This document shows, one piece after another, positions 33,174 through 42,836 of a DNA stretch of 64,000 nucleotides. This DNA is from Pseudomonas allokribbensis. Lineage in GTDB: Bacteria; Pseudomonadota; Gammaproteobacteria; Pseudomonadales; Pseudomonadaceae. A program made the translations under genes and the position numbers. The DNA is taken from NCBI RefSeq assembly GCF_014863605.1, contig NZ_CP062252.1:5465001-5529000 (forward strand), written 5' to 3'. Below the pieces are notes generated by a model that did not search any database, was not told the DNA's origin, and saw nothing but the letters and a program-made list of their open reading frames with translations. Position 1 is the stretch's first letter. Each line of letters starts with the position of its first letter.

Positions 33174-34160
33174 ATGACTGTACCTATCGCAATCATTGGC
33201 ACCGGCATCGCCGGACTCTCCGCCGCCCAGGCCCTGACAGAGGCCGGGCACAGCGTTCAGTTGTTCGATAAAAGCCGTGGCAGCGGCGGGCGCATGTCGA
33301 GCAAGCGCAGTGACGCCGGCTCGCTGGACATGGGCGCGCAGTATTTCACCGCCCGAGATCGACGCTTCGTCACCGAAGTCCAGCGCTGGCAAAGCCAGGG
33401 CTGGGTCGCCGAGTGGACGCCGCAGCTCTACACCTATCATGGCGGGCAACTGAACCTGTCGCCGGACGAGCAGACCCGCTGGGTCGGCACACCGCGCATG
33501 AGCGCCATCACCCGTGGCTTGCTCGACGGCCTGGAAGTGCACTTCGCCTGCCGGATCACCGAGGTCTATCGCGGCGAAGAACACTGGCACCTGCAAGATG
33601 CCGAAGGCTTCACCCACGGGCCGTTCAGCCATGTGGTGATCGCCACCCCGGCCCCACAGGCCACCGCGTTGCTGGCCGCTGCACCGAAACTCGCCGGGGC
33701 CGCTGCAGGCGTGAAGATGGACCCGACCTGGGCCGTCGCCCTCGCCTTCGACACGCCGCTGGATACGCCCATCGAAGGCTGCTTCGTGCAAGACAGCCCC
33801 CTCGACTGGCTGGCCCGCAACCGCAGCAAACCGGGGCGCGACAACACGCTCGACACTTGGGTCCTGCACGCCACCAGTGCCTGGAGCCGGCAGCATATCG
33901 ATCTGCCCAAGGAGGCCGTGATCGAGCAATTGCACGGTGCCTTCGCCGAGTTGCTGCACAGCGCCATGCCCGCGCCCACCTTCAGTCTCGCCCACCGCTG
34001 GCTCTACGCCCGCCCATCCACCAGCCATGAATGGGGCACGCTGGCGGATGCCGATCTGGGGCTTTATGCATGCGGCGACTGGTGCCTGTCAGGCCGGGTC
34101 GAGGGCGCGTGGCTCAGCGGTCAGGAAGCTGCACGTCGTCTGCACGAACACCTGCAGTGA
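33174..34160 (+). CDS. FAD-dependent oxidoreductase, renalase-like
   Basis: 328 residues from the ATG at 33174, with GAGG upstream. The FAD dinucleotide motif is [17 protein letters not shown], then [15 protein letters not shown] and a C-terminal [20 protein letters not shown]. It belongs to the NAD(P)/FAD amine-oxidase-like group near renalase. Its promoter has a light-regulator operator, so it is probably light-induced. The stop overlaps the GTG of the next gene. Confidence 0.85.
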
Positions 34161-34372
34161 ACCGCTTCAATCCGCGCAAACTGCTGCTGTCGAAATGGAC
34201 AGCAGCCCTCCCGCAAAACCGTGAAAAGCATTTTCTGATAACCAGACTATTCTGCGACGAGGATGGCACGGTGCTAGAGATTGAATTACAGGCTGTGTTG
34301 ACCCGACACAGCACGCAGTTGGACTGGCACGCATTGCAGGACGATGCGCACTGGAAAATGGGCTGGCTCTAG
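34157..34372 (+). CDS. TIGR02450-family Trp-rich small protein
   Basis: 71 residues with a GTG start inside the GTGA overlap with the oxidoreductase stop. The N-terminal [15 protein letters not shown] and EKHFLITRL match the small Trp-rich family TIGR02450. Function unknown. Translationally coupled to the FAD enzyme. Confidence 0.8.
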
Positions 34373-34387
34373 TTCTCGCCAAAATCC

Positions 34388-34411
34388 TGTACAAATAAAT
34401 TGACTTGTACA
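34388..34411 (+). promoter_or_regulatory. LitR/PplR operator 1 of the light operon
   Basis: TGTACA-N12-TGTACA, an exact match to the reported PplR1 direct-repeat consensus. It overlaps a TTGACT -35 (34400-34405), which pairs with TATGCT (34422-34427) at 16 bp. Confidence 0.8.
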
Positions 34412-40282: not shown

Positions 40283-41094
40283 ACAGCGCGCTCTACAGCG
40301 GCTGGATCGCCCATCGGCGATTCGCTCCGCGCCGTCATGAATTCCGCTACCGGATCGGGCTGATCTATCTCGACCTGACTGAACAGGACGCCGTGCTGAA
40401 CCTGTCGCCCTTGGCGGGCGCGAACCGGTTTGCCCCGTTCTCATTTCGCGAGACCGACTACCTCAAGACCTTCACCGGTCGTGGTGTGCGGCTGATCGAT
40501 GCCGTGCGCCTGCTGGTCGGTGAGGCCCTCGGTCACGAGCCGCAGGGTTCGATCTGCCTGTTGACCCAGCCGCGCAGTTGGGGCCTGGCATTCAACCCGG
40601 TGAGTTTCTTTTACTGCCACGAGGCCGACGGGCAACTGGCGGCGATTCTCTGCGAAGTCAGCAACACGCCGTGGCGTGAGCGCTATCACTATGTGCTCCC
40701 GGCTCAAGCGCCGACCAACGTACGCGACTTCCACCAGCATTTCGCCGTGGCCAAGGCGTTTCACGTTTCGCCTTTCCTGCCGCCGGATCTGGAATACCGC
40801 ATGAGTTTCAGCCCCGCCGCGCAAACCCTGGGCGTGCACATGGCCGACTGGCAGGGCGAGCAAAAACTGTTCGACGCCACGCTCAACCTGAAACGCGAAC
40901 CTCTTGATCGACGCAACCTGCACCGGCATCTGTGGCGCTTTCCCTGGATGACCGCCAAGACCGCCCTCGCGATCTATTGGCAGGCCCTGCGATTGCTGCT
41001 CAAGCGCACCCCGCTGTTTCCCCATCGGACGGCCGACGACAGCTTTCGAACCGCCACTGCGTCTCCCGAGGAGCACCGCCATGAAATCCTCTAG
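40279..41094 (+). CDS. DUF1365 family protein
   Basis: 271 residues with a GTG start in a GTGA overlap. Matches DUF1365 (ALYSGWIAHRRFAPRRHEFRY, then AFNPVSFFYCHEADG and NTPWRERYHYVL). Function unknown; always seen beside the amine oxidase and Cfa-like genes. Overlaps the next gene by 14 bp. Confidence 0.88.
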   Translation: MNSALYSGWIAHRRFAPRRHEFRYRIGLIYLDLTEQDAVLNLSPLAGANRFAPFSFRETDYLKTFTGRGVRLIDAVRLLVGEALGHEPQGSICLLTQPRSWGLAFNPVSFFYCHEADGQLAAILCEVSNTPWRERYHYVLPAQAPTNVRDFHQHFAVAKAFHVSPFLPPDLEYRMSFSPAAQTLGVHMADWQGEQKLFDATLNLKREPLDRRNLHRHLWRFPWMTAKTALAIYWQALRLLLKRTPLFPHRTADDSFRTATASPEEHRHEIL

Positions 41095-42352
41095 CGTTTC
41101 GGCCAGAGCCATCCCGTTCAGTACGTACGGCATCACCGGTTCGCTGCTGCGCCGTGGAGTTCTTCGTCAGCTCGCACAGCTCAAGCATGGGCAACTGGTG
41201 GTGATCGAGGACGGCGAACGCCAGGTCTTCGGCACGCCGGGCAGTGCGTTGCTGGGCGAGATTCATGTCCTTGATGCGGCGGCGTGGGGCATGGTCGCGG
41301 GCAACGGTTCGATCGGTGCGGGTGAAGCCTTCATTCATGGTTACTGGAGTTCGCCGGACCTGACGGCGGTAGTGCGGGTCTTCGTCAGCAACCTTGAGGT
41401 GCTCGATGGCATGGAGGGCGGACTGGCGAAAATCGGCCGGCCGCTGGTGCGCGGGCTGCACTGGCTTAACCGCAACACACGCAAGGGCTCGCAGAAAAAC
41501 ATCGCCGCGCACTACGACCTCGGCAACGATCTGTTCGAGCAGTTTCTCGACCCGACCATGATGTACTCGGCGGCGCAGTTCCTGCGTCCCGACGACAGCC
41601 TGGAACAGGCGCAGTTGAACAAACTGGAGCGGATCTGCCAGAAACTCGCGCTCGAACCCGGCGACCACCTGCTGGAAATCGGCACCGGCTGGGGCAGCAT
41701 GGCGCTGTACGCCGCGCAGCACTATGGCTGCAAAGTCACCACGACCACGCTGTCCAAAGAGCAATACGCGTTCACGGCCCGGCGCATCGAAAGCCTCGGC
41801 TTGCAGGATCGAGTGACACTGCTGCTCAAGGACTACCGCGACCTCACCGGCCAGTACGACAAACTGGTATCGATCGAGATGATCGAAGCGGTCGGCCATC
41901 GCTTCCTGCCGACCTACTTCAAGCAATGCGCGCACCTGCTCAAGAGCAACGGCCTGATGCTGCTGCAAGCAATCACCATTCGGGACCAGCGTTACGAGCA
42001 GGCGAAACGCGGCGTGGATTTCATCCAGCGTTACATCTTCCCCGGCGGCGCCCTGCCCTGTGTGCAGAAGATGCTCGAAATCGTCAGCCGCGACACCGAC
42101 ATGAACCTGCTGCACATGGAAGATTTCGGCCTGCACTACGCCCGGACCCTGCGCCTGTGGCATGAGAACTTTCGCCATGCCCACGGCCGTCTGAGCGAAT
42201 TGGGCTACGACGATTATTTCCTGCGGCTGTGGGAGTTTTATCTGTGCTACTGCGAGGGCGGCTTCCTCGAACGCACCATCGGCACCGCGCAATTGCTGTT
42301 GGCCAAACCGGCGGCCATGCCGGCACCGTTGCTCGGGCGCTTCGATGCTTGA
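41081..42352 (+). CDS. Cyclopropane-fatty-acid synthase family methyltransferase (UfaM-like)
   Basis: 423 residues, with GAGGAG upstream. The SAM-binding core is HLLEIGTGWGSMALYAAQHYG, with the family YSAAQF, EMIEAVGHRFLPTYF and QAITIRDQRYEQ blocks. The light-inducible P. putida homologue is named ufaM (furan-fatty-acid synthesis). The enzyme is expected to methylate unsaturated acyl chains in membrane lipids. A classical Cfa (cyclopropane) function is the alternative. Confidence 0.85.
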   Translation: MKSSSVSARAIPFSTYGITGSLLRRGVLRQLAQLKHGQLVVIEDGERQVFGTPGSALLGEIHVLDAAAWGMVAGNGSIGAGEAFIHGYWSSPDLTAVVRVFVSNLEVLDGMEGGLAKIGRPLVRGLHWLNRNTRKGSQKNIAAHYDLGNDLFEQFLDPTMMYSAAQFLRPDDSLEQAQLNKLERICQKLALEPGDHLLEIGTGWGSMALYAAQHYGCKVTTTTLSKEQYAFTARRIESLGLQDRVTLLLKDYRDLTGQYDKLVSIEMIEAVGHRFLPTYFKQCAHLLKSNGLMLLQAITIRDQRYEQAKRGVDFIQRYIFPGGALPCVQKMLEIVSRDTDMNLLHMEDFGLHYARTLRLWHENFRHAHGRLSELGYDDYFLRLWEFYLCYCEGGFLERTIGTAQLLLAKPAAMPAPLLGRFDA

Positions 42353-42836
42353 GCGGATCGCCAACGCCGTTCTGTTCCAGGTCGGCTGGCTGGCCTGCGT
42401 GCTCGGCGGCAACAGCCTGTGGTTGCTGGTGGCGCTGGCGGTGCTGGTGATTCATCTGCGCTGGATCAGCAGTTGGGCGGCGGAGGGTCGACTGATTCTC
42501 AGCGTGGTGATTCTGGGTACGGCCGTGGACAGTGGCTTGCGCGGCCTCGGGGTGTTCGAGTTCAAGGATCTGTCGCCGCTGATTCCGCTGTGGCTGATGT
42601 TGCTGTGGGCGCTGCTCGCCACGACGTTACGCCATTGCCTGCAATGGAGCGCCCGGCCCTGGTGGCTGGCGGCTCTGCTCGGAGCCGTCGGTGGTGCGTT
42701 GTCGTATTGCGCCGGTGGACGACTGGCCGGAGTGCAATTTCCCTACGGCGAGTTACCGACCTTGATCGGCATCGGTCTGTTGTGGGCGCTGCTGTTTCCG
42801 TTGTTGCACCAACTGTCCGGGCGTCTGGAAGACTGA
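42345..42836 (+). CDS. DUF2878 inner-membrane protein
   Basis: 163 residues with about five hydrophobic segments (VGWLACVLGGNSLWLLVALAVL, LIPLWLMLLWALLATTL, LIGIGLLWALLFPLL). Matches DUF2878. Last gene of the light operon, overlapping the methyltransferase by 8 bp. Function unknown; could be a membrane partner in lipid modification. Confidence 0.82.
   Translation: MLERIANAVLFQVGWLACVLGGNSLWLLVALAVLVIHLRWISSWAAEGRLILSVVILGTAVDSGLRGLGVFEFKDLSPLIPLWLMLLWALLATTLRHCLQWSARPWWLAALLGAVGGALSYCAGGRLAGVQFPYGELPTLIGIGLLWALLFPLLHQLSGRLED

What the first reader, a model, noticed from the sequence alone, without database searches (positions are those of the whole stretch)
33174..42836. Light-induced photoprotection and lipid-modification cluster with several undescribed members
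Photolyase, regulator and UfaM-like methyltransferase are translationally chained with proteins of unknown function (DUF523-DUF1722, NTF2-like, SDR, amine oxidase, DUF1365, DUF2878) through 4-14 bp overlaps. Hypothesis: the last six genes (37837-42836) make or move a singlet-oxygen-scavenging (furan or methylated) fatty acid, while the first three handle DNA and nucleobase photodamage.
Basis: partly seen in the sequence, partly recalled or inferred. Interest (0 to 1): 0.8.

Follow-up and report, generated by a model that had tools for sequence, protein, structure and literature searches.

The report
Light-switched furan-lipid photoprotection operon
A Pseudomonas bacterium carries a light-controlled operon that repairs light damage and very probably makes furan fatty acids, membrane lipids that soak up singlet oxygen; most parts are known from other bacteria, but three conserved partner genes still have no known job.

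Summary
Confirmed: nine co-directional genes (34484-42836) chained by 4-14 bp overlaps, plus a separate gene (33174-34160). Most of this is already described. The P. mendocina counterpart is a blue-light-induced operon; DUF523-DUF1722 is the tRNA desulfidase RudS; DUF1365 and the FAD protein before it match UfaO and UfaD of the furan fatty acid pathway. With UfaM, all three steps sit side by side. The promoter carries two exact TGTACA-N12-TGTACA operators; the 6.57-Mb genome has one more exact copy, before a CryB-like photolyase frame. The separate gene is a bacterial renalase with a near-match operator.

Open: three members. In 397 genomes, DUF2878 occurs with DUF1365 in 81 of 83 and the NTF2-like protein in 90 of 91. 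NTF2-like adjoins the SDR in 56 of 57 loci. An MFS_2 transporter stands in 33 of 120 loci, and none of those 33 genomes has DUF2878. I infer that NTF2-like and SDR act after furan synthesis and that DUF2878 does the transporter's job. No lipid was measured.

The parts
33103..33126 (.). LitR operator-like site (one mismatch) before the renalase gene
   Evidence: a site (exact or one mismatch) about 50-63 bp before the renalase homologue in seven other loci (L049-L053, L056, L057)
33174..34160 (+). bacterial renalase (dihydro-NAD(P) oxidase), separate transcription unit
   Evidence: PDB 4zcc, E 4.6e-183, residues 1-328
34388..34411 (.). exact TGTACA-N12-TGTACA operator 1, overlapping the -35 hexamer
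34400..34427 (+). promoter TTGACT-N16-TATGCT
   Evidence: read directly; the measured P. mendocina promoter is TTGACT-N16-TATGAT
34438..34461 (.). exact TGTACA-N12-TGTACA operator 2
34484..35437 (+). RudS, tRNA 4-thiouridine desulfidase (TudS-DUF1722)
   Evidence: Pfam; C14, C46, C111, E48, R57, S108, S110 match the RudS_KT residues at an offset of 3
35434..36378 (+). class II LitR-type MerR regulator
   Evidence: MerR plus B12-binding_2 only
36375..37844 (+). deoxyribodipyrimidine photolyase (PhrB)
   Evidence: Pfam; NF007955 530 bits, cut-off 506
37837..38259 (+). NTF2/SnoaL-like protein, function unknown
   Evidence: PF12680; co-occurs with DUF1365 in 90 of 91 genomes
38256..39038 (+). short-chain dehydrogenase/reductase, function unknown
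   Evidence: PF00106; beside the NTF2-like gene in 56 of 57 loci
39035..40282 (+). UfaD-like FAD desaturase
   Evidence: homologue directly before DUF1365 in 118 of 118 loci; 39-43% identical to two Rhodobacteraceae homologues
40279..41094 (+). UfaO-like furan-forming oxygenase (DUF1365)
   Evidence: PF07103 E 1.6e-76; the only DUF1365 hit in this genome
41081..42352 (+). UfaM-like SAM-dependent fatty acyl methylase
   Evidence: PF02353; A-E-Q-I-Y in place of C-E-H-I-Y
42345..42836 (+). DUF2878 membrane protein, function unknown
   Evidence: PF11086; co-occurs with DUF1365 in 81 of 83 genomes; six predicted helices in a low-confidence model (mean pLDDT 67)

Best explanation
This is a Pseudomonas blue-light regulon operon. 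In the dark a class II LitR represses one promoter through two TGTACA-N12-TGTACA operators; blue light, sensed by a short LOV protein encoded elsewhere in the genome, relieves repression (measured in P. mendocina, inferred here). The transcript makes RudS (removes photosensitive 4-thiouridine from tRNA), LitR itself, a DNA photolyase, and a six-gene lipid block. In that block UfaM methylates vaccenoyl phospholipid, UfaD desaturates the product and UfaO uses O2 to close a furan ring, giving a membrane-bound singlet-oxygen scavenger (steps shown in Alphaproteobacteria, inferred here from homology and gene order). The NTF2-like protein and the SDR form a two-protein unit that most likely acts on the furan lipid or its oxidation products rather than in its synthesis (inferred). 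DUF2878 most likely handles the lipid in the membrane, doing the job of an MFS_2 transporter in other lineages (inferred). A renalase with its own operator probably belongs to the same regulon (inferred).
For: Exact operators: 3 places in the genome, 0 for the reversed control; two lie on this promoter and the third 91 bp before a CryB-like photolyase frame. At least one exact operator precedes rudS in 12 of 12 same-family loci that have it, and one precedes the NTF2-like gene in L059 and L060, where the lipid block stands without rudS and photolyase in front. Own-genome LOV with the QDCRFLQ motif and a second LitR, one frame between them. UfaD-like gene directly before DUF1365 in 118 of 118 parsed loci; UfaM-like present in 107 and D-O-M contiguous in 101. 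UfaM, UfaD and UfaO suffice for 9M5; a Halomonas UfaM expressed in E. coli is reported with 11-methyloctadec-12-enoate and its three genes are consecutive. DUF2878 with DUF1365 in 81 of 83 genomes and NTF2-like in 90 of 91, against 187 of 397 with DUF1365. MFS_2 in the cluster in 33 of 120 loci, DUF2878 anywhere in 0 of those 33 genomes.
Against: No lipid or expression data for this strain. DUF1365 identity to Rhodobacteraceae homologues is only 28-35%, and the R. sphaeroides proteins themselves were not compared. The UfaM residue signature does not prove the product: cotton cyclopropane synthases share Q (and S) at two of the positions. RSP1087-1089 are dispensable for furan fatty acid synthesis in R. 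sphaeroides. The co-occurrence and exclusion counts are not corrected for kinship, only one of 45 families holds both DUF2878 and transporter genomes, and the NTF2-like profile was built from cluster members. One-mismatch operator sites are common (26 places, control 11).
Confidence: 0.8

Rival explanations
1. The methyltransferase is a second cyclopropane synthase, and the FAD protein, DUF1365, SDR and NTF2-like protein modify cyclopropane lipids instead of making furans.
For: The protein is a CMAS-family enzyme whose best PDB matches are cyclopropane synthases. Cotton cyclopropane synthases carry Q for H266 and, in two of three, S for C139 (PMC3132707, passages), like the group here.
Against: DUF1365-adjacent enzymes read S/A/G-E-Q-I-Y in 103 of 103 sequences (window included), while this genome has an ordinary Cfa with C-E-H-I-Y, and 17 of 18 other CMAS-type genes in the loci keep H. 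The neighbouring UfaD and UfaO families act on methylated chains in R. sphaeroides.
Confidence: 0.1
2. The NTF2-like protein and the SDR are part of furan synthesis itself in Gammaproteobacteria, for example opening an epoxide and oxidising a dihydrofuran.
For: The NTF2-like profile is nearest in the PDB to limonene epoxide hydrolases (5aif, E 8e-7) and weakly matches MonBI/MonBII (E 0.004). The two genes lie directly before ufaD in 44 of the 57 loci that have the NTF2-like gene.
Against: UfaM, UfaD and UfaO suffice in R. sphaeroides without other added genes. All 7 fetched loci of family f63 (Rhodobacteraceae, by contigs that match) lack the NTF2-like gene, and those genomes are not among its 91 hits. 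Diene + O2 = furan + H2O needs no further redox step (own calculation).
Confidence: 0.25
3. NTF2-like, SDR and DUF2878 are only co-regulated passengers, kept together by shared light control without acting on the furan lipid.
For: No biochemical role is known for them; RSP1087-1089 deletions leave the fatty acid profile unchanged.
Against: They stay with DUF1365 whether the neighbouring regulator is LitR or ECF-ChrR: loci with the NTF2-like gene have LitR in 20, ECF-ChrR in 21 and neither in 16. They occur with DUF1365 in 81 of 83 and 90 of 91 genomes.
Confidence: 0.15

Closest known systems
pmlR1 light-induced nine-gene operon of Pseudomonas mendocina (PME6650-PME6610) and the PplR1 region of P. 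putida KT2440
   Same: Photolyase, class II LitR, SDR, FAD oxidoreductase, UfaM and four hypothetical proteins; TTGACT-N16 promoter with two TGTACA-N12-TGTACA sites; overlapping or closely spaced genes (PMC9758184, parts 1-2 and passages)
   Different: That paper names UfaM but gives no furan role to the FAD and hypothetical proteins; I assign UfaD and UfaO here
Furan fatty acid genes ufaM, ufaD, ufaO of R. sphaeroides and R. palustris
   Same: Same three families; ufaD directly before ufaO; photo-oxidative regulation
   Different: Here LitR instead of ChrR, ufaM in the same operon (in R. sphaeroides it lies elsewhere), and NTF2-like plus DUF2878 are present
Aeromonas salmonicida cluster AxA69_RS13645-13670
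   Same: NTF2, SDR, FAD, DUF1365, cfa, DUF2878 in the same order (PMC10012899, passages)
   Different: Found there as riboflavin-responsive, function stated as unknown
RudS of P. putida KT2440 (PP_0741)
   Same: Domain order and seven tested residues
   Different: None seen; full-length identity was not computed
Bacterial renalase of Pseudomonas (PDB 4zcc)
   Same: Full-length match, E 4.6e-183
   Different: Here preceded by a LitR-type operator site; activity not tested

Membership tests
UfaO (DUF1365 furan-forming oxygenase) | DUF1365 domain with a UfaD gene directly before it | tested here: met
UfaO (DUF1365 furan-forming oxygenase) | converts the methylated conjugated diene to a furan with O2 | not testable with these tools
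   needs an assay
UfaD (FAD desaturase) | FAD/NAD-binding amine-oxidase or phytoene-desaturase-type protein beside ufaO | tested here: met
   Pfam PF01593 and PF13450; 118 of 118 parsed loci
UfaM (fatty acyl methylase) | CMAS-family methyltransferase distinct from the ordinary Cfa of the genome | tested here: met
   two full-length CMAS proteins in the genome with different residue patterns
UfaM (fatty acyl methylase) | makes a methyl branch and not a cyclopropane | tested here: inconclusive
   H266Q and C139A fit the UfaM group, but cotton cyclopropane synthases share such changes
RudS | TudS-DUF1722 fusion with three cluster cysteines and Glu, Arg and two Ser catalytic residues | tested here: met
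class II LitR | MerR HTH plus B12-binding_2 without a second B12-binding domain | tested here: met
class II LitR | represses in the dark and responds to a LOV protein | not testable with these tools
   operators and a LOV gene are present
CPD photolyase (PRK10674 group) | score above the NCBIfam cut-off | tested here: met
   530.3 against 506 bits
bacterial renalase | full-length homology to the solved Pseudomonas enzyme | tested here: met
bacterial renalase | oxidises 2- or 6-dihydro-NAD(P) | not testable with these tools
   needs an assay
limonene epoxide hydrolase (for the NTF2-like protein) | Asp-Arg-Asp triad (recalled) | tested here: not met
   the late Asp of RDYFD is shared; the Arg/Asp of the matched chains (TERTD) align with other residues (W-e-m) of the profile
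MFS_2 transporter (for DUF2878) | sequence homology to MFS_2 | tested here: not met
   the only Pfam match of the 163-residue protein is PF11086; the shared role is inferred from exclusion alone

The most novel reading that the evidence does not exclude
The NTF2-like/SDR pair is a furan-recycling unit: after a furan fatty acid traps singlet oxygen and becomes an ene-dione, the SDR reduces one ketone with NAD(P)H and the NTF2-like protein cyclodehydrates the hydroxy-enone back to the furan (C19H32O4 + 2H - H2O = C19H32O3). DUF2878, a non-homologous stand-in for an MFS_2 transporter, moves or flips the lipid for this. The scavenger would be catalytic instead of sacrificial. R. sphaeroides, whose furan fatty acid disappears under singlet oxygen, would lack the NTF2-like half, as its fetched relatives do.
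Probability: 0.12. Interest if true: 0.85.

Novelty: new member of a known kind. Interest (0 to 1): 0.5.

Why it matters
It turns an operon so far described mainly as light-induced into a complete, testable furan fatty acid pathway in an easily handled genus, and it points to two protein families (a distinct NTF2-like clade and DUF2878) found almost only in genomes with that pathway. If they recycle or move the furan lipid, a membrane antioxidant thought to be consumed would have a regeneration system. It also suggests that cofactor repair by renalase belongs to the bacterial light response.

Tried and rejected
Rejected: an ordinary second Cfa (residue pattern). Rejected: the NTF2-like protein as a true limonene epoxide hydrolase. 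Rejected as regulon evidence: one-mismatch operator sites in general, 26 places (3 of them exact) against 11 in the reversed control; of the others I looked at five, and none sits by a clear photo-response gene. DUF3833 gave no hit in the own genome, but no control genome rang either, so absence is not shown. The SDR is not one NCBIfam equivalog: the window's and two gamma copies score best with NF004765, four others with NF005437, all below cut-off, so its orthology across the phylum is uncertain. I found no R. sphaeroides sequence: the one genome-contig scan kept the best 80 of 268 relatives, and R. sphaeroides is not named among them.

Parsing: the runs merged families or dropped overlapping frames, one search failed; one search replaced them. 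L073 and L103 could not be parsed. In one search I entered their gene strings by hand from earlier output; L103 has a 2.3-kb gap that was not scanned for the transporter and was scored as having none (its genome has no DUF2878 hit). 120 of the 187 DUF1365 genomes were fetched. Only one transporter was checked by Pfam (MFS_2, L139), with two DUF3833 and two Chalcone_3 proteins; the rest were assigned by profiles built. The operator control is a single shuffle per locus that keeps base composition only.
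Full report
What is there. Ten + strand frames lie between 33174 and 42836. Nine of them, 34484 to 42836, are chained by overlaps of 4 to 14 bp; the first is separated by 323 bp. The genome (G000) is a single 6.57-Mb contig. The window's DUF2878 protein matches Pseudomonas proteins; the best hit that carries an organism name is 90% identical (P0004).

The front part. The gene at 33174 aligns over residues 1-328 with the solved bacterial renalase 4zcc at E 4.6e-183. The Pseudomonas enzyme is described as a 2- and 6-dihydro-NAD(P) oxidase (title seen in the reference list of PMC7660482). 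The gene at 34484 is RudS: TudS plus DUF1722, with the seven residues that matter in RudS of P. putida (passages of PMC11417400 seen). It removes 4-thiouridine from tRNA, which is not repair of nucleobase photodamage. The next two are a class II LitR and a photolyase above the NCBIfam cut-off.

Light control. In P. mendocina (PMC9758184; parts 1 and 2 of 8 read, plus passages) the counterpart is a predicted nine-gene polycistron. Light raises phrB 27- to 33-fold and ufaM 25- to 33-fold. The promoter is TTGACT-N16-TATGAT with two TGTACA-N12-TGTACA sites, and a LitR paralogue (PmlR2) is inactivated by an illuminated short LOV protein. Here the promoter reads TTGACT-N16-TATGCT, with exact sites at 34388-34411 and 34438-34461. 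The consensus without mismatch occurs at 3 places in the genome, its reversed control at none. The third place lies 91 bp before a CryB-like photolyase frame (name by resemblance, recalled). In 12 of 12 same-family loci with rudS (L047-L058) at least one exact site precedes it. In L059 and L060, where the lipid block stands without rudS and photolyase in front, a site precedes the NTF2-like gene. A site 49-63 bp before the renalase homologue, exact or with one mismatch, occurs in seven loci besides the window. In this genome a short LOV with the QDCRFLQ motif and a second LitR lie close together, one frame between them.

The lipid block. Lemke et al. 2020 (PMC7380195; abstract, part of the results, discussion and passages seen) showed that UfaM, UfaD and UfaO suffice for 9M5 furan fatty acid, that UfaO is a DUF1365 protein and UfaD a FAD/NAD-binding protein, and state that 9M5 disappears under singlet oxygen. 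The window's FAD protein is 39-43% identical to two Rhodobacteraceae homologues lying directly before DUF1365, and its DUF1365 protein 28-35% to 40 of them. For a Halomonas UfaM overexpressed in E. coli, 11-methyloctadec-12-enoate is reported, and the three ufa genes of that strain are consecutive (PMC12089945, passages). The reference list of PMC7380195 holds a 1997 study titled as furan fatty acid biosynthesis by Shewanella putrefaciens, so a gammaproteobacterial producer is on record.

Synteny. DUF1365 occurs in 187 of 397 genomes drawn across the phylum. I fetched 120 loci around it; 118 parsed. FAD gene directly before DUF1365: 118 of 118. UfaM-like present: 107; contiguous D-O-M: 101. 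NTF2-like: 57, beside the SDR in 56. DUF2878: 37, always directly after UfaM. In other lineages an MFS_2 transporter stands nearby (33 of 118), in 29 of them after DUF1365 or UfaM with at most one recognised gene between, often with DUF3833 and sometimes a chalcone-isomerase-like protein. LitR-type and ECF sigma plus ChrR regulators beside the cluster did not coincide: 27 and 45 loci, 0 with both, 46 with neither. The enzyme block is thus portable between two known photo-oxidative switches.

UfaM signature. At the five positions tied to bicarbonate binding in E. coli Cfa (named in PMC3132707, passages), DUF1365-adjacent enzymes read S/A/G-E-Q-I-Y in 103 of 103 sequences, the window included. 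The ordinary Cfa of this genome reads C-E-H-I-Y; of 18 other CMAS-type genes in the loci, 17 keep H and 1 has Q. Cotton cyclopropane synthases share Q, and two of three share S, so the signature marks the group and not the product.

The three open members. On the same 397 genomes DUF2878 is found in 83, of which 81 have DUF1365; the others are a partial hit (G042) and a hit below the cut-off (G034). The NTF2-like profile (E up to 1e-15) is found in 91, of which 90 have DUF1365; the other (G003) is a fragment. That profile was built from cluster members, which favours but does not force this result. In the 120 loci the transporter (33) never goes with DUF2878 anywhere in the same genome (55); 32 have neither (Fisher 1e-11, not corrected for kinship). 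DUF2878 occurs in 20 and the transporter in 18 of 45 families; one family, f20, holds both kinds in different genomes.

What they may do. The order D-O-transporter-DUF3833-SDR in four loci of family f63, and the published lengths of RSP1087 to RSP1090 (245, 186, 402, 250 residues), suggest that the R. sphaeroides genes dispensable for synthesis include the transporter and the SDR (inferred; their sequences were not seen). This points to roles after synthesis. The NTF2-like protein has invariant D35, W79, D113 and D116 and a near-invariant H111 in 21 sequences; it resembles epoxide hydrolases in sequence but their Arg/Asp pair does not align. Reduction of an ene-dione by the SDR and cyclodehydration by the NTF2-like protein would restore a furan. 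I hold this as the bold reading, not the main claim.

UfaO chemistry. Diene + O2 = furan + H2O balances without a reductant (own calculation), in line with the published remark that none had to be added. Across 119 sequences a single His and a single Asp pass 95% conservation (the positions printed there are 11 too high, they are H12 and D60 as), so no classical two-His metal site is seen.

What is in print. In the held library I saw no paper that ties the FAD and DUF1365 members of the Pseudomonas light operon to UfaD and UfaO, none that gives DUF2878 a biochemical role, and none that puts renalase under light control; I judged by listings and the passages read. Most subscription papers are not held, and the key P. 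putida paper (Sumi 2020) could not be read. One paper reports PP_0738 to PP_0742 of P. putida up-regulated as a cluster in co-culture (PMC11014904, passages). DUF2878 of V. cholerae (VC1123) was studied for colonisation and is noted as a member of the predicted PhrR regulon (PMC12971978, passages).

Verdict. A real, well-conserved light operon, mostly explained by published work; the furan pathway is complete here by homology. The unexplained part is sharp and testable: two families found almost only in genomes with this pathway.

Noticed in passing
33103-34160: A renalase gene with a conserved LitR-type operator site: repair of damaged NAD(P)H may be part of the light response.
   Followed up: partly
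L032:1501-3024 (G000:C1:2949344 on): The only other exact operator copy in the genome lies 91 bp before a CryB-like photolyase frame.
   Followed up: yes
L118, L139, L090, L122 and other loci: In other lineages the cluster carries DUF3833 (lipoprotein-like) and chalcone-isomerase-like proteins, also of unknown role.
   Followed up: partly
40279-41094 and 118 aligned DUF1365 sequences: UfaO-type proteins show one invariant His and one near-invariant Asp, no classical two-His metal site, although the reaction uses O2.
   Followed up: no
L079, L082, L086, L097, L115: A second CMAS-type gene follows DUF2878 in these clusters, perhaps a further lipid methylase.
   Followed up: no
L088:11322-11897: A Cu/Zn superoxide dismutase frame lies directly after UfaM in this locus.
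   Followed up: no
31038-32976: Frames resembling ferrochelatase and a TIGR01777-type epimerase lie just upstream on the other strand; porphyrins are photosensitisers. Names by resemblance (recalled), no family search run.
   Followed up: no
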